The notes under the pieces: generated by a model
Databases searched by the model: none
What the model was told of the DNA's origin: nothing
What the model saw: only the letters and a program-made list of their open reading frames with translations
Shown here: piece after piece, positions 39,493-62,101 of the stretch
Layout of the letters: the number at the start of each line of letters is the position of its first letter
How positions within the stretch are numbered: position 1 is the stretch's first letter
Made by a program: the position numbers and the translations under genes
Origin: Actinomycetospora soli
Lineage (GTDB): Bacteria; Actinomycetota; Actinomycetes; Mycobacteriales; Pseudonocardiaceae
Reading direction: 5' to 3'
Assembly: GCF_021026295.1 (NCBI RefSeq)
Contig: NZ_JAJNDA010000020.1
Location: 1 to 64,000, forward strand
DNA length: 64,000 nucleotides

Positions 39493-40476
39493 GTGCCGCT
39501 CTACGCCTCCGAACACGAGCAGCTGCGCGCCTCGGTGCGCGGTCTGCTGGGGACCGCCGACCCCCGGGCCGACGGGTACGACCGGGCGCTCTGGCGCCGG
39601 CTCTGCGACGAGCTCGGCGTCGCCGGTCTCGCGATCGGCGAGGAGCAGGGCGGCTCGGGCTACGGGCCCGTCGAGCTCGCCGTCGTGGCCGAGGAGGTCG
39701 GCCGCGCCAACCTCCCCTCCCCCTTCCTGACGACGACGCTGGCCGGTCTCGCGCTCGCGGCCGGCGGGGAGGACGTCGGCCCGGTCGTCCGCGGCGACCG
39801 CCTCGCGACCGTGTCCTTCTCCTCCGACGGCCGCCACGTCGTGGACGGCGACGTCGCCGACGTGCTCGTGCTGGTCGGGGACACCGCCGGCACGGTCACG
39901 GTGGTCGAGCTCGCGTCCGTCGTCCGGACCCCGCTCACGACGATGGACCTCACGCGCGGTCAGGCCCACCTCGACCTCGCGGACGCGCCCCGCCGCACGA
40001 TCGCCGCGGACCCCGACCGGATCGCCGCCCTCGCCGTCACCCTGCTGGCCTGCGAGCAGATCGGCGGCGCGGAGCGGGTGCTGGAGATGTCCACGGCGTA
40101 CGCAACGCAGCGCGTCCAGTTCGGGCGGCCGATCGGGTCGTTCCAGGCCGTGAAGCACCTGCTCGCCGACATGCTCGTCGAGCTCGAACTGGCGCGGTCG
40201 GCCCAGCAGCACGCGGTGGCGCTGGCCGCCGACCCCGCCACGACCGCCCCGGAGCTCGACGCGGCCGCGCGCACCGCGCACGTGGCCTGCACGCGCGCGT
40301 TCGTCCGGCTCACCGGCGACGCGATCCGCGCGCACGGCGGGATCGGCTACACCTGGGAGCACGACGCACACCGGTACTTCCGGCGGGCCCGTGCCTCCGC
40401 CGTCCTCTTCGGGTCCCCCGCCGACGACGCCGACCGTCTCGCCGAGCACGCGGGCCTGGCGAGGGCCGCGTCGTGA
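39493..40476 (+). CDS. Acyl-CoA dehydrogenase, small-type subunit (FadE, steroid/terpenoid type)
   Basis: 327 aa, GTG start, shorter than the usual 380-400. N-terminal helical domain (EHEQLRASVRGLL; GEEQGGSGYGPVELAVVAEEVG), a reduced middle sheet domain, and C-terminal helices with TQRVQFGRPIGSFQAVKHLLADM and HGGIGYTWEHDAHRYFRRA. Mycobacterial steroid-catabolic acyl-CoA dehydrogenases are alpha2-beta2 heterotetramers encoded by adjacent genes; this gene and the next (GTGA overlap) fit that pattern. Introduces the alpha-beta double bond. Confidence 0.88.
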   Translation: MPLYASEHEQLRASVRGLLGTADPRADGYDRALWRRLCDELGVAGLAIGEEQGGSGYGPVELAVVAEEVGRANLPSPFLTTTLAGLALAAGGEDVGPVVRGDRLATVSFSSDGRHVVDGDVADVLVLVGDTAGTVTVVELASVVRTPLTTMDLTRGQAHLDLADAPRRTIAADPDRIAALAVTLLACEQIGGAERVLEMSTAYATQRVQFGRPIGSFQAVKHLLADMLVELELARSAQQHAVALAADPATTAPELDAAARTAHVACTRAFVRLTGDAIRAHGGIGYTWEHDAHRYFRRARASAVLFGSPADDADRLAEHAGLARAAS

Positions 40477-41669
40477 CCGAGACCGTGCCCGCCTTCCGCC
40501 GCCGCGCGGCGGACTTCCTCGCCCGCCAGGGGTGCCGCCACGAGGACGCCCCGAGCCGGTCGCGCGCCCCCGGCGACTACGTCGCCGCCGCCCGGGTCCA
40601 CCAGCACGCCCTGGCCGAGCACGGGCTGGCGGGGATCACCTGGCCGGCCGAGTACGGCGGACTCGGGCTGGGCCCGGAGTTCCGGGCGGCCTTCGACGAG
40701 GAGGCCGCCGGGTTCGAGACGTTCTCCGCCCTGTTCACCATCGGCCTCGGCATGTGCGGTCCGGTGCTGCTCGCCCTCGGCACGCCGGAGCAGCGGGAGC
40801 GGTACCTGCCGCCGCTCCTGCGGGCCGACGAGGTCTGGTGCCAGCTGTTCTCCGAGCCCGCCGCGGGGTCCGACCTGGCGGCGCTGGCCACCCGTGCGAC
40901 CCCGGACGGCGACGGCTGGCGGGTCTCCGGGCAGAAGGTGTGGACGACCTACGCCCACCAGAGCGACCGCGGCCTCCTGCTCGCCCGGACCGACCCCGGG
41001 AAGCCCAAGCACCGCGGCATCACGATGTTCGTGCTCGACATGGCCGCGCCCGGGGTGACGGTCCGCCCGCTGCGGCAGGCCACCGGCGACGCCGAGTTCA
41101 ACGAGGTGTTCCTCGACGACGTCCGGGTCGGGCCCGGGGACGTCGTCGGCGCGGTCGACGAGGGCTGGCGCGCGGCCACGCTGATGCTGATGAACGAACG
41201 GGCGGCGCTCGCCGACAGCCCGATCGGCTCGCCGGTCACGCTCGAGGCCGTCGTCGCCCTGGCGCGGCGGACCGGCCGGACCGGCGACCCCTTCGTCCGG
41301 AGGGCCGTGGCCGACGCCTACGTCATGCAGCAGCAGGTGGAGCTCTTCGCCCGGCGTGTCGCGGGCGACGTGCGCGTCGGGCGGGACCCGGGCGCCCTCG
41401 CGTCGATCGGCAAACTCGCCGCCGGACGGCTCGCCACCCAGGTCGCCGCGCTCGCGCTGGAGGTCGCGGGACCGGACGCCGTCGCGTGGGACCCCGCCGA
41501 CCCCGACGGCGAGCTGTGGGCCTACGGCGAGCTCTACGCGCCGTCGCTCTCGATCGCCGGCGGCACCGAGCAGATCCAGCGCACCGTCCTCGGCGAGCGG
41601 GTGCTCGGGCTGCCCCGCGAGCCGCAGACCGACCGTGACGTCCCGTTCCGCGACCTGCGGCGCGGGTGA
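40473..41669 (+). CDS. Acyl-CoA dehydrogenase, large-type subunit
   Basis: 398 aa, GTG start overlapping the preceding stop. Contains EYGGLGLGPEFRAAFDEEAAGFE, the FAD/substrate region WCQLFSEPAAGSDLAALATRA, KVWTTYAHQSDRGLLLART, and C-terminal LSIAGGTEQIQRTVLGERVLGLP. It probably dimerises with the product at 39493-40476. First gene pair of an operon that continues with an acyl-CoA synthetase. Confidence 0.9.
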   Translation: MTETVPAFRRRAADFLARQGCRHEDAPSRSRAPGDYVAAARVHQHALAEHGLAGITWPAEYGGLGLGPEFRAAFDEEAAGFETFSALFTIGLGMCGPVLLALGTPEQRERYLPPLLRADEVWCQLFSEPAAGSDLAALATRATPDGDGWRVSGQKVWTTYAHQSDRGLLLARTDPGKPKHRGITMFVLDMAAPGVTVRPLRQATGDAEFNEVFLDDVRVGPGDVVGAVDEGWRAATLMLMNERAALADSPIGSPVTLEAVVALARRTGRTGDPFVRRAVADAYVMQQQVELFARRVAGDVRVGRDPGALASIGKLAAGRLATQVAALALEVAGPDAVAWDPADPDGELWAYGELYAPSLSIAGGTEQIQRTVLGERVLGLPREPQTDRDVPFRDLRRG

Positions 41670-41679
41670 GGAGCCGACG

Positions 41680-43278
41680 ATGGCCCTCACGACCTCGTAC
41701 CGCCCCGCGGACACCACGCCCCCGCTGTGGGAGGAGACCGTCGGCGCCCTGCTCGTCCGTCGGGCGGCCGAGCACCCCGACCGGTTCGCGCTCGTCGGCA
41801 CGCGGCACGGCGACGGCACCGAGGTCCGGCTGACCTACGCCGAACTGCTCGACGAGGCCCGCCGCGTCGCCGCCGCCCTCGCCCGCCTCGTCGAGCCCGG
41901 GGAGCCGGTCGCGTTGTGGGCGCCGAACGTCGTCGAGTGGCCGGTGATCGAGTACGGCGCCGCGCTCGCGGGCGTGGTCCTCGTGGCCCTGAACCCGGTC
42001 CTGCGCCGGCGCGAGCTCGAGTACGCCCTCGACCACTCGCGCGCGACGGTGCTGCTGCACGCCGACCGCAGCCGGGACCATGACATGGCGGCGATCGCCC
42101 GCGACCTCCCCGGCGTCACCGCGATCAGCCTCGCCGAGACCGCCCGCTGGAAGGCCGACGCGGCGGACGACGCGGTGGTCGCCGCGGAGCCGGCCGACCC
42201 GTCGGCGCCGGTGATGCTGCAGTACACGTCCGGGACGACGGGGAACCCGAAGGGCGTCCTGCTCTGCCACCGGTCATTGGTCAACGTCGCGCAGCTGACG
42301 ATGCACGTCACGCGGGCCGCGCCGGGCGCGGCGTGCGTGAACCCGCTGCCGATGTTCCACACGGCGGCGTGCGTCATCGGCACCCTCGGCCCGCTGTGTC
42401 TCGCTGGCACCGAGGTGCTCGTGGAGCAGTTCGCGCCCGGGCCGGTCCTCGCGCTGATCCACCGCGAGGCGGCGTCGGTCCTGTTCTACGTCCCGGCGGT
42501 GCTCGGCGCCCTGCTCGAGGCCCAGCGCGCCGCCGACCGGCCCGCCCCGCGACTGACCACCGCGATGGGTGGCGCCGCGACCGTCTCCCCCACGATGATC
42601 CAGGCCGCCGAGGACGTCTTCGGGGCCTCCGTGATCAACCTGTTCGGGCAGACCGAGCTCGCTCCCGTCCTCACCGCCACCCGCCCCGACGACGCCCGCA
42701 CCGACCAGCTCGAGACCGTCGGTCGCCCGCTGCCCCACGTCGAGGTGAAGGTCGTCGACCCGGTCGACGGCGAGGTCGTCCCGCTCGGCGAACCGGGCGA
42801 GATCTGCGCCCGCGGGTACCAGCAGATGCTCCGCTACCTGCACGACCCGGAGGCCACCGCCGCGACCGTCGACGCCGACGGCTTCCTGCACACCGGGGAC
42901 CTCGGGGCGCTCGACGACCGCGGCCACCTCCGCCTCACCGGCCGGCTCAAGGAGCTGATCATCCGCAAGGGCGAGAACATCGCCCCGCCGGAGATCGAGA
43001 ACGTGGTGGTCAGCCACGCGGCGGTCGTCGGGGCGGCGGTCCTCGGCCTTCCCGACGACAGGTCGGGGGAGATCGTCGCGGCCGTGCTGCGGGTGCGGGA
43101 GGAACGGTCCGGTCTGCGCGACGAGCTCGTCGCGCACTGCCGGGAGCGGCTGTCCCCGCACAAGATCCCGAGCCGCTGGTTCGTGGTGGAGGACTTCCCG
43201 CTGACGCCCACGCAGAAGGTGCAGAAGTTCCGCCTCGCGGAGCTCGCGACGTCCGGCGAGCTCCGCGAGCTGACCTGA
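41680..43278 (+). CDS. AMP-binding acyl-CoA synthetase
   Basis: 532 aa from ATG 41680 (GAGGAG upstream, 10 bp after the dehydrogenase). Adenylation motifs: YTSGTTGNPKGVLLCH (phosphate loop), FGQTELAPVLTATRP, GFLHTGDLGALDDRGHLRLTGRLKELIIRKGENI and PLTPTQKVQKFRLAEL with catalytic Lys. It activates a carboxylic acid to its CoA thioester at the start of the pathway. The fatty-acid/cyclohexane-carboxylate-type motif set does not fix the substrate. Confidence 0.9.
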   Translation: MALTTSYRPADTTPPLWEETVGALLVRRAAEHPDRFALVGTRHGDGTEVRLTYAELLDEARRVAAALARLVEPGEPVALWAPNVVEWPVIEYGAALAGVVLVALNPVLRRRELEYALDHSRATVLLHADRSRDHDMAAIARDLPGVTAISLAETARWKADAADDAVVAAEPADPSAPVMLQYTSGTTGNPKGVLLCHRSLVNVAQLTMHVTRAAPGAACVNPLPMFHTAACVIGTLGPLCLAGTEVLVEQFAPGPVLALIHREAASVLFYVPAVLGALLEAQRAADRPAPRLTTAMGGAATVSPTMIQAAEDVFGASVINLFGQTELAPVLTATRPDDARTDQLETVGRPLPHVEVKVVDPVDGEVVPLGEPGEICARGYQQMLRYLHDPEATAATVDADGFLHTGDLGALDDRGHLRLTGRLKELIIRKGENIAPPEIENVVVSHAAVVGAAVLGLPDDRSGEIVAAVLRVREERSGLRDELVAHCRERLSPHKIPSRWFVVEDFPLTPTQKVQKFRLAELATSGELRELT

Positions 43279-43295: not shown

Positions 43296-44438
43296 TCAGG
43301 CCTGGACGGCGGCACCCGAGGCGAGCAGCGCGTCCACGTCGACGCCGGCCGCGGCGAGCACCTCCCGGGAGTGGGCACCCGGCGCCGGGGACGGCGCGGG
43401 GTCGGCCACGGGATGGCCCGAGAAGCGGGGCGCGGGGCCGGGCTGGAGGCGGCCGTCGTGCTCGACGACGCTGCCCCGCGCGGCGACCTGGGGGTGCGTC
43501 GCGGCCTCGGTGAGTCCGAGGACGGGCGCGACACAGGCGTCGGTGCCGGCGAAGACGGTGGCCCACTCGTCGCGCGTGCGGCTCGCGAACGCGGCGGCGA
43601 TCGTGGCGCGCAGCTCCGGCCAGTGGTCGCGGTCGTGCTGGCGGGCCGGGTCCTCGTCGACGCCGAGCAGGCGGAGGAACTCGGCGTAGAACTTCGGTTC
43701 CAGTGCCCCGACCGCCATGTGTCCACCGTCGGCGGTGGCGTAGACCGCGTAGTAGGGCGTCCCGCCGTCGAGCATGTTCGCGCCGCGGCGGTCGGTCCAG
43801 CGGCCGGAGCCGAGCATGGCGTGGATCGCGGCGAGCAGGTGCGAGGCGCCGTCGAGGATCGCGGCGTCGACGACCTGCCCGCGGCCCGTGCGCGCGGCCT
43901 CGGCGAGCGCCGCGAGGACGCCGATGACGAGGTAGGTGGACCCGCCGCCGAAGTCGCCGAGGAGGTTGAGGGGCGGCACGGGCGGACCGTCCGCCGGACC
44001 GATCGCGTGCAGCGCGCCGGTGAGCGCGATGTAGCCGATGTCGTGGCCGGCGGTGTGCGCCCAGGGCCCGTCCTGCCCCCAGCCGGTCATGCGGCCGTAG
44101 ACCAGGCGCGGGTTGCGGGCCCACACGTCGTCGGGTCCGACCCCGAGGCGTTCGGTGACGCCCGGGCGGTTGCCCTCGATGAGGACGTCGGCGGTCGCGG
44201 TGAGCGCCAGCAGGGCCTCGACCGCCTCCGGACGCTTGAGGTCGAGGACGACCGAGCGTTTCCCGCGGTTCAGCACGTCGGCCGTGGGCGGCGCCGGGGC
44301 CAGTCCCGCGCCGGTGGGCCGGTCGACGCGGATCACGTCGGCGCCGAGGTCGGCGAGCAGCATCGCGGCGAAGGGCCCCGGACCGATCCCGGCCAGTTCG
44401 ACGACCGTGACACCGGAGAGCGGACCCGCGATTCTCAT
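43296..44438 (-). CDS. Alpha-methylacyl-CoA racemase (CaiB/BaiF family III)
   Basis: 380 aa. Racemase-type features: GVTVVELAGIGPGPFAAMLLADLGADVIRVDRP, DVLNRGKRSVVLDLKRPE, the active-site stretch YGRMTGWGQDGPWAHTAGHDIGYIALTGALHAIG and LNLLGDFGGGSTYLVIGVLAAL (Asp). It would interconvert 2R and 2S methyl-branched acyl-CoAs, needed for oxidation of isoprenoid or sterol side chains. The ATG lies within operator site b, so repression would block initiation directly. Confidence 0.9.
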   Translation of the reverse strand: MRIAGPLSGVTVVELAGIGPGPFAAMLLADLGADVIRVDRPTGAGLAPAPPTADVLNRGKRSVVLDLKRPEAVEALLALTATADVLIEGNRPGVTERLGVGPDDVWARNPRLVYGRMTGWGQDGPWAHTAGHDIGYIALTGALHAIGPADGPPVPPLNLLGDFGGGSTYLVIGVLAALAEAARTGRGQVVDAAILDGASHLLAAIHAMLGSGRWTDRRGANMLDGGTPYYAVYATADGGHMAVGALEPKFYAEFLRLLGVDEDPARQHDRDHWPELRATIAAAFASRTRDEWATVFAGTDACVAPVLGLTEAATHPQVAARGSVVEHDGRLQPGPAPRFSGHPVADPAPSPAPGAHSREVLAAAGVDVDALLASGAAVQA

Positions 44439-44456: not shown

Positions 44457-45200
44457 GTGGACGGTTCCTGGGCACTGGTGGCGGGCGGATCGGGCGGGAT
44501 CGGCCGGGCGGTGTGCCGGGCACTGGCGCAGGACGGGTGGGACGTCGTCCTCACCTACCGGCACGGCGTCGACGCCGCGGGGGTCGCGGCGGGTGAGGTC
44601 GAGGCGGCCGGGCGGCGGGCCGTCGTCGCGCAGGTCGACCTGACCGACGCCGCCGCGACCGCAGCGGTGGTCCGGTCCGCACCGTTCGGCGCCGTCGTCT
44701 ACGCGGCCGGCCCGCACATCCCGATGCGCTACATCTCCACGATCACCCCGGAGCAGTACCGCGACCAGCTCCTCGGTGACACCGTGGCCGCCTACAACCT
44801 GCTGCACCCGGCCATCGAGGTGCTGCGCGGGACGCAGGGGTCGATGGTCGCGCTGGTGACGCCCGCGGTGGAGCGCTACTCGAAGAAGGACATGCTCTCC
44901 TCGGCACCCAAGGCGTCGGTGGCGGCCACCGTCCGCGGCATCGCCGCCGAGGAGGGCCGGTACGGCGTGCGCGCGAACTGCGTCGGGGTCGGGCTGCTCG
45001 AGGGCGAGGGGATGTGGTCCGAGCTGGTGGCGCGCGGCGACTACACCGAGGAGCTCCTCGCCACGGCACGCGCGAACCTCGCGCTGCGGCGGTTCGGGTC
45101 GGTGGAGGACGTGGCCGAGGCGGTGCGCTTCCTCGTCTCCGCCCGCGCCGGCTGGATCACCGGTCAGACGCTCAACGTCGACGGCGGCTACGCCCTCTGA
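44457..45200 (+). CDS. SDR-family oxidoreductase with altered active site
   Basis: 247 aa, GTG start. Rossmann motif VAGGSGGIGRAVCRALAQDG and C-terminal GWITGQTLNVDGGYAL are intact. The expected Tyr-x3-Lys is replaced by a Ser at the Tyr position (LSSAPKASVAATVRG), and the nearest Tyr is in VERYSKKD. It could be a non-classical reductase or have lost activity. Regulated from site b together with the racemase. Confidence 0.82.
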   Translation: MDGSWALVAGGSGGIGRAVCRALAQDGWDVVLTYRHGVDAAGVAAGEVEAAGRRAVVAQVDLTDAAATAAVVRSAPFGAVVYAAGPHIPMRYISTITPEQYRDQLLGDTVAAYNLLHPAIEVLRGTQGSMVALVTPAVERYSKKDMLSSAPKASVAATVRGIAAEEGRYGVRANCVGVGLLEGEGMWSELVARGDYTEELLATARANLALRRFGSVEDVAEAVRFLVSARAGWITGQTLNVDGGYAL

Positions 45201-46288
45201 GCCGTGAGCCCGACGTCGCGGTGGACGTCGATCGCGGCGAGCCGCGGGAGCACCTGCTCGGCGTAGACGTCCGCCGCCCGCTGCGCGACGTGCTGGGGCA
45301 TGCCGCCGAAGGCGAACAGGTTGACCACACCGCCCGCGTCGAGGGCACGGACCCGCTCGACGGTCTGCTCGACCAGCTCGTCGGGCGTACCGCCCATCTG
45401 CAGGTCGGCGAGGAACCGGTTGAACGCGGGCAGGCCGTGCTTCTCGATGTTCCGGCGCAGCCCGGCGTAGTACTCGTAGCCCGGCACGGTCTCGAGGCGC
45501 GGGTCGGTGAACCCGTAGTGCTCGATCGTCGAGCGGGCGTAGGCCGTGGCGTACTCGTCGTGCAGGTCCCGCGCGCGGGCCGGGTCGGGGTCGATCGTCG
45601 TGAAGTTGACGAGCACCGGCGCGGGCGGGTCCTCGTCGTGGATCGACCGGTAGAGCTCGCGGTACTCCGCGGTCTCCCGCACCGTGACCTCCCACGGCTT
45701 CTGCGCGATCAGCATCAGGCCATAACCCAGACCGGCCATGATGCGGGCGGACTCCGGCGACACCGCCGAGGCGTAGGTGCGCCCGCGGAACGTGGTGAAC
45801 GCCGGCGGGTGCAGTTCCGCGCGGGGCTGGCGGTAGAGCTCGCCGTCGTGCTCGATCGCCCCGGACTCGAAGGCCGCCGAGATCGCGGTGGCGTACTCGA
45901 CGAACCGCTGCCGCGACTCCCCCATCTCGAGGCGGAAGTCGTCGAACTCGATCGCGCCGAGCCCGCGACCGAGGCCGAGCAGCACCCGGCCGCCGGACAC
46001 CGAGTCCAGCCAGGCGATCTCCTCGGCGACACGGACCGGGTCGTGCCACGGCAGCACCATGACCATGGTGCCGAGCCGGACGGTGCGCGTGCGGCCCGCG
46101 AGATAGGTCAGCAGCTGCGCCGGGTTCGGCATCATGTGATAGCGCGTGAAGTGGTGCTCGGCGGTCCAGATCGAGTCGAACCCGCGCGGCTCGGCCTGGT
46201 CGGCGAGCGCCAGGCCGCCGCGCACGACGTCGTGGTCGTCGCGGCCGGGCTCCAGCCCCTGGAAGAACAGCCCCATCCCGACGTGCAC
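45188..46288 (-). CDS. LLM-class flavin-dependent oxidoreductase
   Basis: 366 aa from GTG 46288 (VHVGMGLFFQG, matching the family's MxVGMGLFFQ start). LLM barrel motifs: FDSIWTAEHHFTRYHMMPNPAQLLTYLAGRT, GRVLLGLGRGLGAIEFDDF, and a long insert with HPPAFTTFRGRTYASAVSPESARIM. It resembles group II luciferase-like monooxygenases using reduced FMN. It is last of a four-gene operon from site c and overlaps the convergent SDR gene by 13 bp. Confidence 0.87.
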   Translation of the reverse strand: MHVGMGLFFQGLEPGRDDHDVVRGGLALADQAEPRGFDSIWTAEHHFTRYHMMPNPAQLLTYLAGRTRTVRLGTMVMVLPWHDPVRVAEEIAWLDSVSGGRVLLGLGRGLGAIEFDDFRLEMGESRQRFVEYATAISAAFESGAIEHDGELYRQPRAELHPPAFTTFRGRTYASAVSPESARIMAGLGYGLMLIAQKPWEVTVRETAEYRELYRSIHDEDPPAPVLVNFTTIDPDPARARDLHDEYATAYARSTIEHYGFTDPRLETVPGYEYYAGLRRNIEKHGLPAFNRFLADLQMGGTPDELVEQTVERVRALDAGGVVNLFAFGGMPQHVAQRAADVYAEQVLPRLAAIDVHRDVGLTAQRA

Positions 46289-46292: not shown

Positions 46293-47156
46293 TCACCCCA
46301 CCGGGTTGACGCCGGGCGTGGCGCCGGAGAGGTCGGTGATCTCGGCCCAGCGGTCGGTGACCTGCTCCGGGGTCGGGACGTCGGCGAACGTGACGCCCTT
46401 CGACTGGAACCAGGCCACCGTGTGGACCTGCCCGCCACCCGCGACGATCACCTCGCCGGAGTCCGTGCACTCGTCGCCGAGCAGATGCGCCACCACGGGC
46501 GCGACGTGCGCGGGCCCGAGCTTCTCCAGCACCTCGGGCGGCGCGATGTCCGCGGTCATCCGGGTCGCGGCCATCGGCGCGATCGCGTTGGCGAGGATTC
46601 CGTACCGGGCGCCCTCGATCGCGAGCGTGCGGATCAGTCCGATCAGCCCGCCCTTGGCGGTGCCGTAGTTCGCCTGGCCGAAGTTGCCGTAGATGCCCGA
46701 CGTCGACGTGGCGACGACGACGCGCCCGTGGCGCTGCTCGCGGAAGTGCGGCCAGGCCGCGCGGACGACGTGGAAGGCGCCGCCGACGTGGACGTCCTGC
46801 ACCGCCTGCCAGTCCGCCTCGCTCATCTTGTGGAACGCGCCGTCGCGCAGGATCCCGGCATTGGCCACGACGCCGTCGATGCGCCCGAACGCCTCGACCG
46901 CGTCGGCGACGACCTGCGCGCCGCCCGCCGGGTCGGCGACGCTGTCGTGGTTCGCGACCGCCTCACCGCCGGCACCGCGGATCTCCTCGACGACGGCGTC
47001 GGCCGCGGAGTGGCCCGACCCGGTGCCGTCCCGGGCACCGCCCAGGTCGTTCACCACGACGCGCGCGCCGTGCCGGGCCAGCAGCAGGGCGTACTCCCGG
47101 CCGAGCCCACCGCCCGCCCCGGTGACGGCGACGACGCGACCTTCGACTCCGGACAC
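46293..47156 (-). CDS. 3-hydroxyacyl-CoA dehydrogenase-type SDR (MFE-2/HSD17B4-like)
   Basis: 287 aa, GTG start after GGGAGGA. Features of the HSD17B4 dehydrogenase domain: TGAGGGLGREYALLLARHGARVVVNDLGG with the inserted loop GTGSGHSAADAVVEEIRGAGGEA, NAGILRD, catalytic Ser STSGIYGNFGQ and YGTAKGGLIGL. It would oxidise the 3-hydroxyacyl-CoA made by the MaoC hydratase encoded directly upstream, an arrangement known for sterol and branched fatty acid side-chain oxidation. Confidence 0.9.
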   Translation of the reverse strand: MSGVEGRVVAVTGAGGGLGREYALLLARHGARVVVNDLGGARDGTGSGHSAADAVVEEIRGAGGEAVANHDSVADPAGGAQVVADAVEAFGRIDGVVANAGILRDGAFHKMSEADWQAVQDVHVGGAFHVVRAAWPHFREQRHGRVVVATSTSGIYGNFGQANYGTAKGGLIGLIRTLAIEGARYGILANAIAPMAATRMTADIAPPEVLEKLGPAHVAPVVAHLLGDECTDSGEVIVAGGGQVHTVAWFQSKGVTFADVPTPEQVTDRWAEITDLSGATPGVNPVG

Positions 47157-47671: not shown

Positions 47672-47696
47672 CATGCTGCGGTCGAGGAGGACACCC

Positions 47697-55146: not shown

Positions 55147-55379
55147 TGGACGACGACGGGTTGGTGGCCAGCGAGTTCGCCACCGTGCGGGTCTCGCTCG
55201 ACACGCAGGGCAACAGCCCTCGGCTGCGCCTCGAGGACCTCCGGTCCGGCGCCGTGCGGTTCCTCGACGCGCTGGAGCTCGAGTCGATCGTCTGGGCGCC
55301 CGAGGGCTTCCTGCGCGAGCTGCTCGACCCGTCCCGGCACCGGTGGCGTGACGACGGGTCCGCGGGCGGCGGACCGTAG
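55146..55379 (+). CDS. Small conserved-looking protein coupled to the dioxygenase
   Basis: 77 aa; its ATG shares one base with the beta-subunit stop (TGATG), so it is translationally coupled. MDDDGLVASEFATVRVSLDTQGNSPRLRLEDLRSG then ALELESIVWAPEGFLRELLDPSRHRW: a short beta region followed by helix, no Cys or membrane segment. Not recognised. Coupling suggests a chaperone-like or accessory role for the oxygenase. Confidence 0.6.
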   Translation: MDDDGLVASEFATVRVSLDTQGNSPRLRLEDLRSGAVRFLDALELESIVWAPEGFLRELLDPSRHRWRDDGSAGGGP

Positions 55380-55388: not shown

Positions 55389-56009
55389 GTGGCACGAGAA
55401 CGGCCCGGGCCGGTGCGCGAGGGAGCGAAGTCCGCGCGGACGCGGGAGCGCATCCTGCTCGCCGCCGCCCAGGTGCTGAGCCGGAAGGGCTACGCCGGGA
55501 CCCGGCTCTCCGACGTCGCCACGCTCGCCGAGGTCCAGGCGCCCGCCGTCTACTACTACTGGACCTCGCGCGAGGAGCTGCTCGAGGAGGTCGTCACCGT
55601 CGGCCAGCGGGCCACCATGGAGCACGTCGTCGCATCCATGGAGGCGCTGCCCGTCGGCACCCCGGCGATGGAGCGGATCGCCCGCGCGGTCGCCGCGCAC
55701 CTCGAGGTGGTCCTCGGCCGCTCGGACTTCTCCCAGGCCGCGATCCGCAACGCCGGACAGCTCCCCGCCGACATCCGCGAACGCCAGCTCGTCGGGCAGC
55801 GGGAGTACGCGGACGTCTGGCGCCGGCTCGTCGAGGAGGCCGTCGCCGCCGGGGAGATGTCCCCCGACGTCGACACCCGGGCCGCCCGGATGCTCGTGCT
55901 CGGCGCGCTCAACTGGGCGCCGGAGTGGTGGGACCCGGAGCGCAACCCGCTGGAGGAGGTCGTCGCGATCACCCAGCGGATCGTGCGCCGGGGTCTCCGC
56001 CCGTCCTGA
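55389..56009 (+). CDS. TetR-family regulator 1
   Basis: 206 aa, GTG start. The helix-turn-helix region ARTRERILLAAAQVLSRKGYAGTRLSDVATLAEVQAPAVYYYWTSREELLEEV is nearly the same as in the TetR at 61472, including recognition helix QAPAxYYY; the ligand domain is also similar. It probably binds the eight palindromic sites of the cluster. Located 10 bp downstream of the dioxygenase operon, which is likely to include it and so give feedback. Confidence 0.9.
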   Translation: MARERPGPVREGAKSARTRERILLAAAQVLSRKGYAGTRLSDVATLAEVQAPAVYYYWTSREELLEEVVTVGQRATMEHVVASMEALPVGTPAMERIARAVAAHLEVVLGRSDFSQAAIRNAGQLPADIRERQLVGQREYADVWRRLVEEAVAAGEMSPDVDTRAARMLVLGALNWAPEWWDPERNPLEEVVAITQRIVRRGLRPS

Positions 56010-56108: not shown

Positions 56109-56142
56109 TCGGCGCACCCAGTTCCCGCACGCGGAGGTGCCC

Positions 56143-57294
56143 ATGCCCGAGGCCTACATCGTCGACGCCGTCCGCAGCCCGGTCGGCCGGCGCAACGGGG
56201 GGCTGGCGAAGGTCCACCCGGCCGACCTGGCGGCGCACCCGATCCGGCAGCTCGTCGAGCGCACCGGGGTCGACCCGGAGGCGATCGACGACGTCATCCT
56301 CGGCTGCCTCGACACGATCGGCGCCCAGGCCGGCGACATCGCACGCACCGCGGCCCTGGCGGCCGGGCTCCCCGAATCGGTCCCCTGCGTCACCGTGGAC
56401 CGGCAGTGCGGCTCGTCGCAACAGGCCGTCGGCTTCGCCGCGCAGGCGGTGATGTCCGGGACCGCCGACCTCGTCCTCGCGGGCGGGGTGCAGGTCATGA
56501 GCCAGTACCCGATCCTGTCGTCGTTCGCCGCCGGCGAGCCCTTCGGCGCGGTCGACCCCTGGACCGGCTGCGAGGGCTGGGAGGCGCGCTACGGCAACCA
56601 GGAGATCTCCCAGTTCCGGGCGGCCGAGATGATCGCCGACCGCTGGGACATCTCCCGCGAGGCCATGGAGCGCTTCGCCTACGAGAGCCACCACCGGGCG
56701 CTGCGGGCGATCGACGAGGGCCGGTTCGACCGCGAGATCGTGCCGATCGCCGGGCTCTCCGCCGACGAGGGCCCGCGCGCCGACACCACCCCCGAGAAGA
56801 TGGCCGGCCTGAAGACGCTCGCGCCCGGCGGGAAGATCACCGCCGGTGTGGCCAGCCAGATCTCCGACGGCGCGGCGTGCCTCGCGATCGCCTCGGAGCA
56901 GGCCGTGGCCGACCACGGTCTCACCCCCCGGGCCCGCGTCCACCACGTCTCGGCCCGCGGCACCGACCCGGTGATCATGCTGACCGCCCCGATCCCGGCC
57001 ACCGCGCACGCCTTGAAGAAGACCGGGCTCGACATCGGCGACATCGACGTCGTCGAGATCAACGAGGCCTTCGCCAGCGTCGTGCAGGCGTGGCTGATCG
57101 AGACCGGCGCCGACCCGGCGCGCGTCAACCCGAACGGCGGGGCCATCGCCCTCGGGCACCCGCTCGGCGCCACCGGCGCGCGGCTCATGACGACGATGCT
57201 CCACGAACTGGAGCGCACCGGCGGCCGCTACGGGCTGCAGACGATGTGCGAGGGCGGCGGCCAGGCCAACGTCACGATCATCGAGCGGCTGTAG
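56143..57294 (+). CDS. Thiolase (acetyl-CoA acetyltransferase, FadA type)
   Basis: 383 aa from ATG 56143 (GGAGG upstream). Nucleophile Cys in VDRQCGSSQQAV (about residue 88), His in NGGAIALGHPLGATGARLMT and second Cys in LQTMCEGGGQANVTIIE. It releases acetyl- or propionyl-CoA from 3-ketoacyl-CoA, closing a beta-oxidation round. Its stop abuts the stop of the convergent hydratase with no gap. Confidence 0.94.
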   Translation: MPEAYIVDAVRSPVGRRNGGLAKVHPADLAAHPIRQLVERTGVDPEAIDDVILGCLDTIGAQAGDIARTAALAAGLPESVPCVTVDRQCGSSQQAVGFAAQAVMSGTADLVLAGGVQVMSQYPILSSFAAGEPFGAVDPWTGCEGWEARYGNQEISQFRAAEMIADRWDISREAMERFAYESHHRALRAIDEGRFDREIVPIAGLSADEGPRADTTPEKMAGLKTLAPGGKITAGVASQISDGAACLAIASEQAVADHGLTPRARVHHVSARGTDPVIMLTAPIPATAHALKKTGLDIGDIDVVEINEAFASVVQAWLIETGADPARVNPNGGAIALGHPLGATGARLMTTMLHELERTGGRYGLQTMCEGGGQANVTIIERL

Positions 57295-58089
57295 CTACCG
57301 ACCGACGAACCTCGGGGGCCGCCGCTCGATGACGGCGGCGAGCCCCTCGAGGGAGTCGGCGGTACCGGACAGCTCGGACACGGTCCGGGCCTCCTCCGGC
57401 AGCTGCGCCTCCACCCGCGAGCCGAGCCCCGACCACATCAGCCGCTTCGTCGCGGCCAGCGCCAGCGGGGCGCCGTCGACGAGGCGGGCGACCAGCTCGT
57501 CGACCGCCGCGTCGAGCCCGTCGTCGGGAACGACCCGCGTGAGCAGCCCCAGCTCGAGCGCCTCCGCGGCCGTGAGCACCGGGTTGGTCAGCGAGATCTC
57601 CAGCGCCTTGCGCAGCCCGACCAGCGCCGGGAGCGTCACCGTGGTCCCGGCGTCGGGCGCCATGCCCACCCGCGTCGCCCCGCCGAGGAAGGACGCCGAC
57701 TCCGCCGCCACGACGAGGTCGGAGGCGCAGACCAGCCCGAAGCCGCCGCCCCCGGCGGCGAATCCCTGCACCTTCGTGACGACGGGTGCGGGCAGGTTCA
57801 GCAGTCCCTGCACCACGATCTGCAGCCACGACGTGGCCTCGCGCAGGTAGTCGGGCAGCCCCTCGCCCTTGCTCGCGAACGTCTTGACGTCGCCGCCGGC
57901 GCAGAAGTGCCGCCCCTCCCCCGACAGCACGAGGACACGCAGGCCCGGCCGGCCGTGGCAGGTCATGACGGCGTCGTGGAAGGCGCGCAGGAGCGGTACG
58001 TCGAGCCCGTTGCTCGCCTCCGGACGATTCAGCCGCAGGCGCGCGACGCCGCGGTCGTCGACGTCGAGCAGGACGGGCGAGGAGCTCAC
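57295..58089 (-). CDS. Enoyl-CoA hydratase/isomerase
   Basis: 264 aa. Crotonase features: NRPEASNGLDVPLL, FCAGGDVKTFASKGEG, VQGFAAGGGGFGLVCASDLVVAA, GATRVGMAPDAGTTVTLPALVG (one catalytic acid), and LTRVVPDD. Its start directly follows the P450 stop, so both come from site g. Confidence 0.9.
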   Translation of the reverse strand: MSSSPVLLDVDDRGVARLRLNRPEASNGLDVPLLRAFHDAVMTCHGRPGLRVLVLSGEGRHFCAGGDVKTFASKGEGLPDYLREATSWLQIVVQGLLNLPAPVVTKVQGFAAGGGGFGLVCASDLVVAAESASFLGGATRVGMAPDAGTTVTLPALVGLRKALEISLTNPVLTAAEALELGLLTRVVPDDGLDAAVDELVARLVDGAPLALAATKRLMWSGLGSRVEAQLPEEARTVSELSGTADSLEGLAAVIERRPPRFVGR

Positions 58090-59358
58090 TCAGGGCCTCC
58101 GCAAGGTGTATGGCATGGACGTGATCGCCTGCATGAAGTTGCCGGCGAGGTAGGTCGGCTCTCCGGCCTCGAGCCCCGGAGCGCGCGTCAGGAGCTCGCC
58201 GAACAGGGCGCGGAGCTGGGTCTTCGCGAGCTGGTTCCCGAGGCAGTAGTGCGGCCCGCCGCCGCCGAAGCCGACGTGCGGGTTGGGGTCGCGGGTGATG
58301 TCGAAGCGCATCGGGTCGGCGAACACCTCGGGGTCGCGGTTGCCCGAGGCGTAGAACAGCACCACCCAGTCGCCCTGCCGGATGCGCCGGCCGTGCAGCT
58401 CGACGTCGCGGGTCGCGGTGCGTCGGAAGGTCATGACGGGGGTGGCCCAGCGGACGAACTCGTCCACGGCGGGGCCGATCCGCCCGTCGAGGTCGGCCGC
58501 CAGCAGGTCCCGCTGGTCGGGGTGCAGCGTGAACTGCCGGACCGTGCTCGAGATCGTGTTCCGCGTCGTGTCGTTGCCGGCCACCGAGAGCAGCACGAAG
58601 AAGGCCGCGATCTCGTCGTCGTTGAGACGCTCGCCGTCGACCTCGGCCTGGACGAGGTTCGTCATGAGGTCGTCGGCCGGGTGCGCGCGGCGGTCCTCGG
58701 CGTGCTCGAGCGCGATCCGCATCAGCCCGAGCAGGGACTCCCAGAGCAGCTCGGCGGGCTCCCGGCCCTGCCGGACGTCCTCGTCGCCCCAGCTCACCAT
58801 GCCGTCCGCCGCGGCGGTCGCGAGCTCCCGCGTCTCCTGGTCCTCGAGCCCCATCATCTCGAAGATCGTCCACTGCGGGAGGCGGCGGGAGACCTGCGCG
58901 ACGAAGTCGCCGCTCTCCGTCTCCAGGAGCTCGTCGACGAGCCGGCGGGCCTGGTCGCGGATCTGCGCCTCGATCGTCCGCACCCGCTTCGGGGTGAAGG
59001 CCGCCGAGACGAGGCGGCGCAGCTGGGTGTGCCGCGGGGCGTCGGTCGCGAGGAACGAGCTGGCCGACTCCAGGATCGCGACCGGGACGTCCTCCATCTG
59101 GATGCCCTCGCCGGAGCAGAAGGTCCCGGGGTCCTTGCTGACGGCGACGATGTCGGCGTGGCGGGTCACCGCCCAGAAGCCGGCGCCGTCCTCCGGCGGC
59201 ATCATCGAGCCCTCCGCGGGCGGGTGCCAGCTGATCGGGCGTTCCCGGCGCAGGACCGCGAAGTCGGCCTCCCGGTCCTCCGGGGACTTCGCCCAGAACG
59301 ACAGCGGCGCGAGCGAGACCTCGTCGTTGGGGGGCCGGTCGGTGGTCGCGGTCGTCAT
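58090..59358 (-). CDS. Cytochrome P450 (CYP125/CYP142-like)
   Basis: 422 aa soluble P450. I-helix AGNDTTRNTISSTVRQF (the A-G-N-x-T-T pattern of CYP124/125/142), K-helix ExxR in DEFVRWATPVMTFRRTA and haem Cys in GFGGGGPHYCLGNQLAKTQLRALF. In mycobacteria these P450s hydroxylate the terminal methyl of cholesterol or branched lipids to a carboxylic acid. With CoA ligase and racemase in the cluster this suggests an isoprenoid-like side chain. No dedicated ferredoxin gene is adjacent. Confidence 0.93.
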   Translation of the reverse strand: MTTATTDRPPNDEVSLAPLSFWAKSPEDREADFAVLRRERPISWHPPAEGSMMPPEDGAGFWAVTRHADIVAVSKDPGTFCSGEGIQMEDVPVAILESASSFLATDAPRHTQLRRLVSAAFTPKRVRTIEAQIRDQARRLVDELLETESGDFVAQVSRRLPQWTIFEMMGLEDQETRELATAAADGMVSWGDEDVRQGREPAELLWESLLGLMRIALEHAEDRRAHPADDLMTNLVQAEVDGERLNDDEIAAFFVLLSVAGNDTTRNTISSTVRQFTLHPDQRDLLAADLDGRIGPAVDEFVRWATPVMTFRRTATRDVELHGRRIRQGDWVVLFYASGNRDPEVFADPMRFDITRDPNPHVGFGGGGPHYCLGNQLAKTQLRALFGELLTRAPGLEAGEPTYLAGNFMQAITSMPYTLRRP

Positions 59359-59426: not shown

Positions 59427-60221
59427 GTGGACCTCGGACTGGGCGGCGCCCGGGTGATCGTGACCGGTGGCGCCTCGAACATCGGGCGTGGCATCGTGCA
59501 CGGCTTCGCCCGCGAGGGCGCCCGCGTGCTGCTCGCGGACCGGGACGCCGAGCAGTCGGCCCGCGTGCGGACCGAGGCGCTCGACCTCGGCGCGGCCGAG
59601 GTGCGCGAGGTGATCGGCGACCTGACCGCCGAGGGCGCCGGGGACCGCGTCGTCGCCGACGCCGTCGGGGCGTGGGGCGGCGTGGACGTGCTGGTGAACA
59701 ACTGCGGCTGGAGCGTGCCGGGGTTCCTCACCGAGCAGACCGACCGGGCGCTCTGGCAGCGCACGATCGAGACCAACCTCTACACCGCGATCGACGCGAC
59801 GCAGGCCGTGCTCGCGACCATGACCGAGCAGCGCGCCGGCGCGGTCGTCTTCATCTCCAGCGACGCCGCCTTCGGGGCGGTCCGCCAGGGCGTCTACGGC
59901 ACGACGAAGGCCGGCCTCATCGCCCTCGCCCGCACCACGGCGCGCGAGCAGGGCCGGCACGGCATCCGCGCCAACGTCGTCTGCCCGGGGCTCGTCCTGC
60001 CCGACGAGGGCGGGGTCGGCGCCGACAGCCTCTGGGCCGCGGGGCGCGACGCGATCTTCGATGACGACCAGATCGCCCACGTCACGAAGCAGACCCCGCT
60101 GCGGCGGCTGACCACCCCGGAGGACGTGGCCGCCGCCGTCGTCTGGCTCGCCTCCGACGTCGCCGCCCGCCAGGTCACCGGCCAGGTCGTCGCGGTCGGC
60201 GGCGGATCGTCGATGCCGTGA
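59427..60221 (+). CDS. SDR-family oxidoreductase
   Basis: 264 aa, GTG start. TGGASNIGRGI cofactor motif, a variant NNCGWSVPG where NNAG is usual, Ser in VFISSDAAFG and YGTTKAGLIAL. It may oxidise a hydroxy group introduced by the P450 or a dihydrodiol formed by the dioxygenase. Controlled by site g. Confidence 0.9.
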   Translation: MDLGLGGARVIVTGGASNIGRGIVHGFAREGARVLLADRDAEQSARVRTEALDLGAAEVREVIGDLTAEGAGDRVVADAVGAWGGVDVLVNNCGWSVPGFLTEQTDRALWQRTIETNLYTAIDATQAVLATMTEQRAGAVVFISSDAAFGAVRQGVYGTTKAGLIALARTTAREQGRHGIRANVVCPGLVLPDEGGVGADSLWAAGRDAIFDDDQIAHVTKQTPLRRLTTPEDVAAAVVWLASDVAARQVTGQVVAVGGGSSMP

Positions 60222-60244: not shown

Positions 60245-60262
60245 TTTTACTCTCGATGAAAT
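60245..60262. promoter_or_regulatory. TetR-type operator site h
   Basis: TTTTACTCTCGATGAAAT matches the consensus at 12 of 18. It lies 20 bp upstream of the acyl-CoA dehydrogenase GTG and overlaps an alternative ATG (60256) that is therefore unlikely to be the start. Confidence 0.5.
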
Positions 60263-60282
60263 TCTGTCGCAGGGAGAGCCCC

Positions 60283-61458
60283 GTGAACACGTCCTCGATC
60301 GTCCCCGAGACCGACGAGCGCGCCGCGCTGCGCGACGCCGTCACCGCGCTCGTGAGCCGCTACGGGCACGACTACTTCGTGGAGAAGGCGCACGCGCACG
60401 CCGAGCCCACCGAGTTGTGGAAGGAGCTCGGCGCCGCCGGGTTCCTCGGCGTGCACCTGCCCGAGGAGTACGGCGGGGGCGGCGGCACCCTCGGCGACCT
60501 GCTGGTCGTCGTGGAGGCGGCGTCGGCGGCCGGGTGCCCGCTGCTCATGACGGTCATCTCCCCCGCGATCTGCGGGACGATCCTCGCGCGGCACGCGTCG
60601 CACGAGATGAAGCAGCGCTGGCTGACCGGCATCGCCGACGGCTCGCTCAAGATGGCCTTCGCGATCACCGAGCCCGACGCCGGGTCCAACAGCCACGAGG
60701 TCACCACCACCGCCCACCCCGACGGCGACGGGGGCTGGCGGCTCTCGGGCACGAAGTACTGGACCTCCGGGATCGACGAGGCCGACGCCGTGCTCGTCGT
60801 CGCCCGCAGCGGCAGCGCCCCCGCCACGGGTGACCGCAAGCCGCTGTCGCTCTACGTCGTCCCCACCGACTCCGCGGGCCTGACCTGGCAGCCGATCCCG
60901 GCCGCCCTCACCCAGCCCGAGCAGCAGTTCACGGTGTTCTTCGACGACGTCCCGCTCGGTCCCGAGGCGCTCATCGGCGACGACGGCAACGGGCTGCGGC
61001 AGGTCTTCGCCGGGCTCAACCCCGAGCGCATCACCGCGGCGGCGATCAGCAACGGCATCTCGCTGTACTCGCTGGAGAAGGCGACGGCGTACGCGAACGA
61101 GCGGGCGGTGTGGAAGGGCGTGAAGATCGGGGCGCACCAGGGCGTGGCCCACCCGCTGGCCGAGTGCTACATCGCGGTCGCGCAGGCGCGGCTCATGGCG
61201 CAGCGCGCCGCCGACCTGTTCGACGAGGGCGCCGACGCCGCCGAGGCGTCGAACATCGCCAAGTTCGCGGCCGCCGACTCCTCGCTGCGCACGCTCGACC
61301 AGGCGATGCAGACCCACGGCGGCAACGGCATGTCGCTGGAGTACGGGCTCGCCGACCTGTGGTTCCTGGCCCGCATGCTCAAGACCGCGCCGGTCAGCCG
61401 GGAGATGGTGCTCAACTTCGTCGCCCAGCGCTCGCTCGGACTGCCCGCGTCGTACTGA
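60283..61458 (+). CDS. Acyl-CoA dehydrogenase
   Basis: 391 aa from GTG 60283, which follows AGGGAGAG; the upstream ATG lies in operator h. Motifs: HLPEEYGGGGGTLGDLLVVVEAAS, MAFAITEPDAGSNSHEVTTTA, KYWTSGIDEADAVLVVARSG, HPLAECYIAVAQARLMAQRA and MQTHGGNGMSLEYGLADLWFLARM. Full-length type with its own FAD site. It is followed at 13 bp by a TetR gene, probably in one operon. Confidence 0.92.
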   Translation: MNTSSIVPETDERAALRDAVTALVSRYGHDYFVEKAHAHAEPTELWKELGAAGFLGVHLPEEYGGGGGTLGDLLVVVEAASAAGCPLLMTVISPAICGTILARHASHEMKQRWLTGIADGSLKMAFAITEPDAGSNSHEVTTTAHPDGDGGWRLSGTKYWTSGIDEADAVLVVARSGSAPATGDRKPLSLYVVPTDSAGLTWQPIPAALTQPEQQFTVFFDDVPLGPEALIGDDGNGLRQVFAGLNPERITAAAISNGISLYSLEKATAYANERAVWKGVKIGAHQGVAHPLAECYIAVAQARLMAQRAADLFDEGADAAEASNIAKFAAADSSLRTLDQAMQTHGGNGMSLEYGLADLWFLARMLKTAPVSREMVLNFVAQRSLGLPASY

Positions 61459-61471
61459 CTACGCTGACGCC

Positions 61472-62101
61472 GTGCCCGCGTCCCCCGCCCCGTCGAGCGA
61501 GGGGACCGGTCGCGGCACGAAGTCGGCGCGGACCCGCCGTCGGGTGGTGGACGCCGCGGCGCACGTGCTGGTGCGCCGCGGGTACGCCGGGACGCGGCTC
61601 TCGGACGTCGCGGCGGTCGCCCAGGTGCAGGCGCCGGCGATCTACTACTACTTCTCCTCGCGCGACGAGCTCATCGAGGAGGCGGTCGCCGTCGGGCTGG
61701 CCCGGGCCCGCACGCTGGTGGAGGAGGCGCTCGCGGAGGCCGACGGCTCGCCGCTGGACCGGCTCCGGGTCGCGGTGGCCGCGCACCTGAGCACGCTGCT
61801 GACCCACTCCGACCACGCGGCGGCGGCGATCCGCACCGTGCCGCAGCTGCCCGAGTCGATGCGGGCCCGCCACCGCCAGGCCGAGCGGGACTACGTGGAG
61901 ATCTGGCGGGGCCTGGTCGCCGAGGCCCGGGCGGCCGGCGAGATCGACCGGGACCTCGACCCCGGGGTGGCGCTCATGGTGGTGCTCGGGGCCCTGAACT
62001 GGACCGCCGAGTGGTGGGACCCGGGCCGCGGGTCCCTCGAGGGCATCATCGCCACCGCGCAGCGCCTCGTGGTCGACGGGCTCGCCGCCGACCACGAGTG
62101 A
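61472..62101 (+). CDS. TetR-family regulator 2
   Basis: 209 aa, GTG start. RRRVVDAAAHVLVRRGYAGTRLSDVAAVAQVQAPAIYYYFSSRDELIEEAV differs by few residues from TetR 1 (55389), and both share a C-terminal LGALNWxxEWWDP. The two almost certainly read the same operator and may respond to different ligands. Confidence 0.9.
   Translation: MPASPAPSSEGTGRGTKSARTRRRVVDAAAHVLVRRGYAGTRLSDVAAVAQVQAPAIYYYFSSRDELIEEAVAVGLARARTLVEEALAEADGSPLDRLRVAVAAHLSTLLTHSDHAAAAIRTVPQLPESMRARHRQAERDYVEIWRGLVAEARAAGEIDRDLDPGVALMVVLGALNWTAEWWDPGRGSLEGIIATAQRLVVDGLAADHE

What the first reader, a model, noticed from the sequence alone, without database searches (positions are those of the whole stretch)
39493..62101. Candidate new degradation pathway combining a CYP125/142-like P450, alpha-methylacyl-CoA racemase, two-subunit Rieske dioxygenase and MFE-2-type beta-oxidation
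The mix points to a substrate with a methyl-branched side chain and a ring: P450 and CoA ligase make an acyl-CoA, racemase sets stereochemistry, the dehydrogenase pair, MaoC, SDR and thiolase shorten it, and the dioxygenase plus flavoprotein attack the ring. Genes typical of cholesterol catabolism (kstD, hsaC, kshA, mce transport) are absent, so this is probably not ordinary sterol degradation. Cyclic terpenoid or alkyl-aromatic acids are candidates.
Basis: partly seen in the sequence, partly recalled or inferred. Interest (0 to 1): 0.72.

Follow-up and report, generated by a model that had tools for sequence, protein, structure and literature searches.

The report
Unassigned CoA-dependent ring-acid degradation gene cluster
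This soil actinobacterium carries a real, shared set of genes, for which I found no published role, that most likely breaks down ring-containing oily acids after tagging them with coenzyme A, using a dioxygenase related to, but distinct from, the one some bacteria use on ibuprofen.

Summary
Two labels change. The P450 is CYP268-type (53.6% identical to CYP268A2), not CYP125/142. "mce absent" holds only locally: mce genes lie elsewhere in the genome, and beside orthologous clusters in two other bacteria. The racemase call holds.

The cluster is a conserved unit: orthologues of rhoA, rhoB, ech1, ech2, sdr2, fad and the ligases sit together in varying sets in Mycobacterium, Rhodococcus, Pseudonocardia and others; rhoAB-ech2 recurs in proteobacteria. 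In seven of eight fully read congeners a 12-gene core is complete, while the P450 and the MFE-2-type pair come and go together. This suggests a ring module plus a removable side-chain module.

RhoA's clade neighbours that of IpfA (ibuprofen-CoA dioxygenase), but this genome lacks the thiolase/DUF35 partners that finish the ipf reaction. Two crotonases look PaaG-like, and one extradiol query found nothing in 45 orthologous loci. Best reading: dihydroxylation of a CoA-bound ring, isomerisation and ring opening without a ring-cleaving dioxygenase, fed by trimming a methyl-branched side chain. Substrate and chemistry are inferred. I found no published description.

The parts
39493..40476 (+). acad1, small acyl-CoA dehydrogenase subunit (IpdE2/PimD-like)
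   Evidence: Pfam; NCBIfam IpdE2 234 bits, below its cut-off of 450; in 2 of 9 genus loci, 0 of 45 loci outside the genus
40473..41669 (+). acad2, large acyl-CoA dehydrogenase subunit (PimC-like, below cut-off)
   Evidence: in 2 of 9 genus loci, 0 of 45 outside
41680..43278 (+). lig1, acyl-CoA ligase
   Evidence: Pfam; orthologue in 10 of 24 actinobacterial and 0 of 21 proteobacterial loci
43296..44438 (-). cat3, alpha-methylacyl-CoA racemase
   Evidence: PDB racemases up to 8e-122; His132 and Asp162 kept in 6 of 6 orthologues counted; 4 of 24 and 2 of 21 loci
44457..45200 (+). sdr1, short-chain dehydrogenase, seen in the genus only
45188..46276 (-). lux, luciferase-like oxidoreductase, seen in the genus only
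46293..47156 (-). sdrMFE, MFE-2-type SDR (best NCBIfam PRK07791, below cut-off)
   Evidence: 10 of 24 and 1 of 21 loci
47171..47623 (-). maoC, MaoC-type hydratase family, next to sdrMFE
   Evidence: Pfam; 3 of 24 and 0 of 21 loci
47673..49010 (+). fad, amine-oxidase/phytoene-desaturase-type flavoprotein (core)
   Evidence: Pfam, PDB; 8 of 24 and 8 of 21 loci
49080..50786 (-). lig2, acyl-CoA ligase (core)
   Evidence: Pfam; 9 of 24 and 0 of 21 loci
51370..52128 (-). ech1, crotonase with one Glu and a His in place of the second hydratase Glu (core)
   Evidence: alignment; Glu and His kept in 19 of 19 orthologues counted; 19 of 24 and 0 of 21 loci
52185..53408 (+). snoech, SnoaL_2 domain fused to a PaaG-like crotonase (core)
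   Evidence: Pfam; 4 of 24 and 0 of 21 loci
53405..54661 (+). rhoA, Rieske oxygenase alpha subunit (TTG start inferred)
   Evidence: Pfam; Rieske Cys/His, bridging Asp and two iron His residues kept in 45 of 45; tree
54658..55146 (+). rhoB, Rieske oxygenase beta subunit
   Evidence: Pfam; 24 of 24 and 20 of 21 loci
55146..55379 (+). small, 77-residue conserved protein of unknown function
   Evidence: no Pfam match; 24 of 24 and 0 of 21 loci; alignment
55389..56009 (+). tetR1, regulator (core)
   Evidence: Pfam; 6 of 24 and 0 of 21 loci
56137..57294 (+). thio, acetyl-CoA acyltransferase (NCBIfam PRK07801 equivalog, 673.5 bits over its cut-off of 591)
   Evidence: 8 of 24 and 1 of 21 loci
57295..58089 (-). 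ech2, PaaG-like crotonase (core)
   Evidence: PDB matches include Thermus and E. coli PaaG-type proteins; Asp kept in 38 of 38 counted; 19 of 24 and 19 of 21 loci
58090..59358 (-). CYP268-type cytochrome P450
   Evidence: 53.6% identity to CYP268A2; 3 of 24 and 0 of 21 loci
59427..60221 (+). sdr2, short-chain dehydrogenase (core)
   Evidence: Pfam; 14 of 24 and 0 of 21 loci at 45% identity or more
60256..61458 (+). acad3, acyl-CoA dehydrogenase (core)
   Evidence: Pfam; 5 of 24 and 0 of 21 loci
61472..62101 (+). tetR2, regulator (core within the genus; 0 of 45 loci outside)
   Evidence: Pfam

Best explanation
A catabolic island for ring-containing hydrophobic acids, built of two modules. Side-chain module (here, but lacking its P450, maoC and sdrMFE in 5 of 8 fully read congeners): the CYP268 P450 oxidises a terminal methyl of a methyl-branched chain, a ligase makes the acyl-CoA, the racemase sets the 2-methyl configuration, and acyl-CoA dehydrogenase, MaoC, the MFE-2-type SDR and thiolase shorten the chain. 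Ring module (fad, lig2, ech1, snoech, rhoAB, small, ech2, sdr2, acad3, two TetR): the short ring-bearing acid, held as a CoA thioester, is cis-dihydroxylated by RhoAB. sdr2 and PaaG-like crotonases then oxidise and isomerise the dearomatised ring, and the ring is opened by a crotonase-type C-C hydrolysis, not by a ring-cleaving dioxygenase. Shown: gene content, conservation, modularity, conserved catalytic-position residues, RhoA's kinship to IpfA, no DUF35 and no close Ltp2-like match in this genome. Inferred: substrate, order of steps, the CoA thioester as substrate of RhoAB, hydrolytic ring opening.
For: Conserved neighbourhoods in 24 actinobacterial and 21 proteobacterial loci outside the genus, with 16 other window frames as control. 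Genus comparison: the 12-gene core is complete in 7 of 8 fully read loci (no lig2 orthologue in the 40 kb read of G006); orthologues of P450, maoC and sdrMFE are together present in 3 of 8 and together absent in 5 of 8. The RhoA clade (100/98) lies next to a group (98/98) holding IpfA, reported to act on ibuprofen-CoA (PMC10004696 and PMC11347016, passages). ech2 directly follows rhoAB in 19 of 21 proteobacterial loci and carries an Asp at the PaaG position, not the hydratase Glu pair (the roles of these residues are recalled). One extradiol query found nothing in 45 loci, 889,614 bases, and no ring-cleavage dioxygenase is listed in 5 of 5 annotated stretches (those gene tables are incomplete). 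Racemase residues. The only PF00848 match in the ibuprofen degrader Patulibacter medicamentivorans I11 fits the position of its rhoA orthologue, near mce genes, an ABC ATPase and a CoA ligase. Reviews report a Rieske protein, acyl-CoA synthetase, enoyl-CoA hydratase and ABC transporter raised by ibuprofen in strain I11 (passages).
Against: No substrate, expression or metabolite data. The extradiol search used one query, and this genome was not searched for catechol-cleaving enzymes, so a catechol route encoded elsewhere remains open. A thiolase/DUF35-type pair stands in 32 of 45 other loci of the clade (two of them are the source of the queries), and this genome lacks it, so the chemistry may differ between members. 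P450 and racemase recur in only 3 and 6 of 45 loci. acad1, acad2, sdr1 and lux recur in none. ech2 and snoech score far below the PaaG cut-off (160 and 187 of 345 bits). The Patulibacter locus as held (15 kb) shows no orthologue of ech1, ech2 or snoech, the genome has 6 Rieske-domain matches, and the proteomics paper itself was not held, so identity of its Rieske protein with this one is unproven.
Confidence: 0.4

Rival explanations
1. An ipf-like pathway: RhoAB attacks the ring carbon that bears the acyl-CoA side chain, an acyl fragment is split off, and the resulting catechol is degraded by general enzymes elsewhere.
For: The RhoA clade lies next to the group with IpfA; thiolase/DUF35-type pairs accompany 32 of 45 clade loci; a racemase suits 2-arylpropionyl-CoA substrates (inference); the Patulibacter link.
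Against: This genome has 0 OB_ChsH2_C matches while 12 of 18 genomes of the genus have some, no match to the R. opacus DUF35 protein (which by itself shows little) and only one weak partial match to its thiolase (32%). rhoA is 41% identical to IpfA and outside its group. The one extradiol query found nothing in the loci. The core also carries three crotonases, a flavoprotein and an acyl-CoA dehydrogenase.
Confidence: 0.2
2. Two unrelated pathways lie side by side: a branched-lipid beta-oxidation set (P450, racemase, MFE-2 pair, acad1/2) and a ring-acid set, with no shared substrate.
For: Five of 8 fully read congeners keep the ring core without orthologues of P450, maoC and sdrMFE; acad1/acad2 recur in 0 of 45 loci outside the genus.
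Against: P450, sdrMFE and maoC orthologues also sit near rhoAB on a Pseudonocardia plasmid (68, 74 and 63% identical); a P450 orthologue (58%) lies about 6 kb from rhoA in M. palustre and 14 kb from it in M. avium; sdrMFE recurs in 10 of 24 actinobacterial loci.
Confidence: 0.25
3. Sterol or bile-acid degradation.
For: mce genes lie near orthologous clusters in Patulibacter and on an M. avium plasmid; acad1/acad2 resemble IpdE2/PimC (below cut-offs).
Against: No KshA_C match in the genome (weak control); P450 is CYP268-type; no KstD- or Ltp2/DUF35-type family among the interval proteins scanned; KstD and HsaC were not searched genome-wide.
Confidence: 0.05
4. A biosynthetic or detoxifying cluster.
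For: TetR regulators, luciferase-like oxidoreductases and P450s also occur in such clusters (general knowledge).
Against: CoA ligases, crotonases, acyl-CoA dehydrogenases and a thiolase with no synthase among the interval proteins scanned; patchy distribution (8 of 394 genomes of the class) and nine plasmid records with 64-68% identical rhoA.
Confidence: 0.05

Closest known systems
ipfABDEF ibuprofen pathway (Sphingomonas Ibu-2, Rhizorhabdus wittichii pIBU218)
   Same: Two-subunit Rieske dioxygenase of a neighbouring clade (rhoA 41%, rhoB 48% identical), CoA ligase, probably CoA-thioester logic
   Different: No DUF35 and no close IpfD/Ltp2-type match in this genome, extradiol query negative in the loci, extra crotonases, flavoprotein, dehydrogenases and P450
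paa phenylacetyl-CoA pathway
   Same: PaaG-like crotonases; CoA-bound ring attack (inferred here)
   Different: Rieske dioxygenase instead of the PaaABCE epoxidase (recalled); no PaaZ-like protein among the interval proteins scanned; crotonases far below the PaaG cut-off
Uncharacterised loci of R. opacus PD630, Rhodococcus sp. 008, M. avium pP7a and Pseudonocardia pBCI2-1
   Same: Orthologous rhoAB, small, ech1, ech2, sdr2 with varying sets of ligases, fad, acad3, racemase, P450
   Different: The Rhodococcus and M. avium stretches carry a DUF35/Ltp2-type pair and a third crotonase next to rhoAB; the Pseudonocardia stretch, like the window, does not show the pair
CYP268A2 of Mycobacterium marinum
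   Same: 53.6% identity over 416 residues
   Different: Substrate of the window enzyme unknown; terpenoid substrates of CYP268A2 are recalled, not read
Alpha-methylacyl-CoA racemase MCR (1x74)
   Same: 1.2e-121, His and Asp kept
   Different: Not assayed; partner enzymes differ

Membership tests
ipf ibuprofen pathway | dioxygenase alpha subunit in the same clade as IpfA | tested here: not met
   window clade 100/98 apart from the 98/98 group with IpfA; 41% identity
ipf ibuprofen pathway | IpfD thiolase and IpfE DUF35 partners | tested here: not met
   0 OB_ChsH2_C matches in this 98% complete genome, 12 of 18 genomes of the genus as positive control; no DUF35 match; thiolase only a 32% partial match
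ipf ibuprofen pathway | two-subunit Rieske oxygenase plus CoA ligase | tested here: met
   lig2 is only 30% identical to IpfF
ipf ibuprofen pathway | turnover of 2-arylpropionyl-CoA thioesters | not testable with these tools
   needs enzyme assay
paa-type pathway | PaaG-type isomerase | tested here: inconclusive
   ech2 Asp conserved 38 of 38 counted, but ech2 and snoech score 160 and 187 bits against a cut-off of 345
paa-type pathway | PaaABCE epoxidase and PaaZ | tested here: inconclusive
   none among the interval proteins scanned; genome not searched
Sterol catabolism | KshA 9-alpha-hydroxylase | tested here: not met
   0 matches of PF19298 in the genome; weak positive control (1 of 14, below cut-off)
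Sterol catabolism | KstD and HsaC | not tested
   not searched genome-wide
CYP125/142 | closest to these P450 families | tested here: not met
   CYP268A2 475 bits; CYP124A1 326; CYP125 270; CYP142 195
CYP268 | more than 40% identity to a CYP268 member (naming rule recalled) | tested here: met
   53.6%, 223 of 416
Alpha-methylacyl-CoA racemase | catalytic His and Asp (recalled for MCR) and closest match to racemases | tested here: met
   NCBIfam listed only CoA-transferases, all below cut-off
Rieske ring-hydroxylating oxygenase, alpha-beta type | Rieske Cys/His ligands, bridging Asp, iron His residues, beta subunit | tested here: met
   the third iron ligand was not checked

The most novel reading that the evidence does not exclude
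A further aerobic strategy for CoA-bound rings, beside the box and paa routes: a Rieske dioxygenase dihydroxylates the CoA-tethered ring, PaaG-like and SnoaL-fused crotonases move the double bonds, and an unusual Glu/His crotonase (ech1) opens the ring by hydrolysis. It is fed by a removable CYP268/racemase module that trims methyl-branched side chains such as those of aromatic terpenoids.
Probability: 0.25. Interest if true: 0.75.

Novelty: new variant of a known kind. Interest (0 to 1): 0.5.

Why it matters
If right, it adds a CoA-dependent ring-degradation route shared by actinobacteria and proteobacteria, gives a natural context for the ipf type of dioxygenase, and offers a strong candidate enzyme for ibuprofen attack in Patulibacter. 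It also leaves a conserved 77-residue protein of actinobacterial Rieske operons to be explained.

Tried and rejected
CYP125/142 assignment: rejected. CoA-transferase reading of cat3: rejected, although NCBIfam listed only CoA-transferases, all below cut-off. First RhoA tree (57 rows) with a distant benzoate-like row: set aside because that row had a branch of 7.15 and stood beside the window's own row; rebuilt with 35 rows without it. In the rebuilt tree the fork joining the window clade, the IpfA group and L054 is unresolved and the root is a midpoint, so 'next to' is all that is shown. Fold search with the model of the 77-residue protein (mean pLDDT 77.5, pTM 0.60): no match at E <= 0.001. 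PDB search with the flavoprotein: best match 3ka7, labelled only 'Oxidoreductase'. Literature: of the papers listed for Actinomycetospora degradation clusters (1), DUF35 plus ring-hydroxylating dioxygenase (15 of 45, none of the listed ones holding DUF35) and racemase plus Rieske plus P450 (15 of 18, none of the listed ones holding the racemase term), none is on this set by title or start of abstract. CYP268A2 substrates could not be read, so its terpenoid substrates are recall. An earlier count said the core is in 8 of 8 genus loci; the correct count is 7 of 8.
Full report
Observation. The window is the start of contig C12 of a 6.5 Mb, 98% complete genome. Its nearest named relatives by rhoA are Actinomycetospora strains at 86-96% identity. 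The CoA-transferase-fold protein is an alpha-methylacyl-CoA racemase. The P450 is of CYP268 type (53.6% identity to CYP268A2). The Rieske oxygenase has both subunits and all the ligand residues that I checked.

Is it a unit? I compared the cluster and 16 other predicted window frames with 24 actinobacterial (one of them an unclassified bacterium, L016) and 21 proteobacterial loci carrying rhoA relatives outside the genus. A gene counted if the best-matching stretch was at least 45% identical over half the gene; nine of the 45 loci are shorter than 15 kb, and the five Actinomycetospora loci L009-L013 were left out. Counts, actinobacterial then proteobacterial: rhoA 24 and 21, rhoB 24 and 20, small 24 and 0, ech2 19 and 19, ech1 19 and 0, sdr2 14 and 0, lig1 10 and 0, sdrMFE 10 and 1, lig2 9 and 0, fad 8 and 8, thio 8 and 1, tetR1 6 and 0, acad3 5 and 0, cat3 4 and 2, snoech 4 and 0, p450 3 and 0, maoC 3 and 0. 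acad1, acad2, sdr1, lux, tetR2 and the MFS gene: 0. Fifteen of the 16 control frames scored 0; one, an MFS transporter, scored 2. The R. opacus PD630 plasmid shares a racemase (66%), lig2 (66%), rhoA (67%), ech2 (66%), sdr2 (62%), acad3 (60%) and fad (68%); a Pseudonocardia plasmid shares thio (78%), acad3 (76%), sdrMFE (74%), p450 (68%) and maoC (63%).

Modules. Ten other genomes of the genus have a close rhoA; I read the locus in nine (one contig ends early). The core fad, lig2, ech1, snoech, rhoA, rhoB, small, tetR1, ech2, sdr2, acad3, tetR2 is complete in 7 of the 8 fully read loci; G006 shows no lig2 orthologue in the 40 kb read. Orthologues of P450, maoC and sdrMFE are all present in 3 of 8 and all absent in 5 of 8; more distant P450s and SDRs (26-36%) occur in some of the five. 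Racemase, thiolase, lig1 and acad1/2 are less regular. In the genus, 11 of 18 genomes including this one have rhoA; across the class, 8 of 394 including this one, in 4 of 138 genera.

Kinship. In a 35-row tree the rhoA clade has 100/98 support and is separate from a group (98/98) holding IpfA of the ibuprofen plasmid pIBU218; the fork joining them with L054 is unresolved (pIBU218 locus). IpfABHI is reported to act on ibuprofen-CoA, and IpfD/IpfE then to release propionyl-CoA and isobutylcatechol (PMC10004696 and PMC11347016, passages; PMC9195938, passages). A DUF35-containing protein (also KASIII-like in a proteobacterial one) and an Ltp2-like thiolase accompany rhoA in 15 of 24 actinobacterial and 17 of 21 proteobacterial loci, the two query loci included (families). 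The window's genome shows no DUF35 domain and no close match to the thiolase, so the ipf ending is unlikely here.

Patulibacter. Its genome has one PF00848 match, which fits the position of the rhoA orthologue (68%), and six Rieske-domain matches. Near it lie MlaD/Mce proteins, an ABC ATPase, an SDR, an acyl-CoA dehydrogenase and a CoA ligase, but no orthologue of ech1, ech2 or snoech in the 15 kb held. Two reviews state that a Rieske protein, acyl-CoA synthetase, enoyl-CoA hydratase and ABC transporter are raised or identified with ibuprofen in this organism (passages). The original paper was not held, so the match is suggestive only.

Mechanism. ech2 and the crotonase half of snoech carry an Asp at the PaaG position (ech2 38 of 38, snoech 5 of 5 orthologues counted; alignment of ech2 to a Thermus protein). 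ech1 keeps one Glu and has His for the other in 19 of 19. The roles of these residues are recalled, and the PaaG resemblance is far below the family cut-off. With one extradiol query negative in 45 loci, I infer dihydroxylation of a CoA-bound ring, isomerisation and hydrolytic opening. The P450 and racemase suggest a methyl-branched side chain. An aromatic terpenoid trimmed to a 2-arylpropionyl-CoA would fit both modules, but this is speculation.

Verdict. An uncharacterised, conserved, probably catabolic cluster; kin to, but not a member of, the ipf pathway.

Noticed in passing
window 50988-51360: Intergenic repeat array with 8 copies of CCGCGACAAGG (0.08 expected); a 14-base form occurs 33 times in the genome, many in clusters, against 3 for the reversed control.
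   Followed up: partly
window 55146-55379: Conserved 77-residue protein near rhoB in 24 of 24 actinobacterial loci, with relatives upstream of rhoA in a second Rieske clade (for example L057, L058, L066); no Pfam match and no fold match at E <= 0.001.
   Followed up: partly
window 52185-53408: SnoaL_2 domain fused to a PaaG-like crotonase; a relative of similar length in R. opacus (L089 18725-19915, 48% identical).
   Followed up: no
window 1532-7548: Another Rieske alpha gene among a DAO-type oxidoreductase, aldehyde dehydrogenase, Fer2 reductase and mandelate-racemase-family gene; perhaps amine or betaine catabolism (guess).
   Followed up: partly
L124 4820-12073 (contig C12 about 66.8-74.1 kb, 3-10 kb beyond the window): A further two-subunit Rieske oxygenase with SDR, Fer2 reductase, an acyl-CoA-dehydrogenase-fold protein and a flavin reductase.
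   Followed up: partly
L020 58-4880; L094 1-7587: mce/MlaD genes near orthologous clusters in Patulibacter and on an M. avium plasmid, suggesting an imported hydrophobic substrate.
   Followed up: partly
L032-L048 (not L038), L090: A compact proteobacterial operon rhoA-rhoB-ech2-SDR-hydrolase-KASIII/DUF35-thiolase-crotonase-crotonase-HADH, recurring from Variovorax to Zhongshania.
   Followed up: partly
whole genome: 47 P450 profile matches in a 6.5 Mb genome, some of them pieces of one gene.
   Followed up: no
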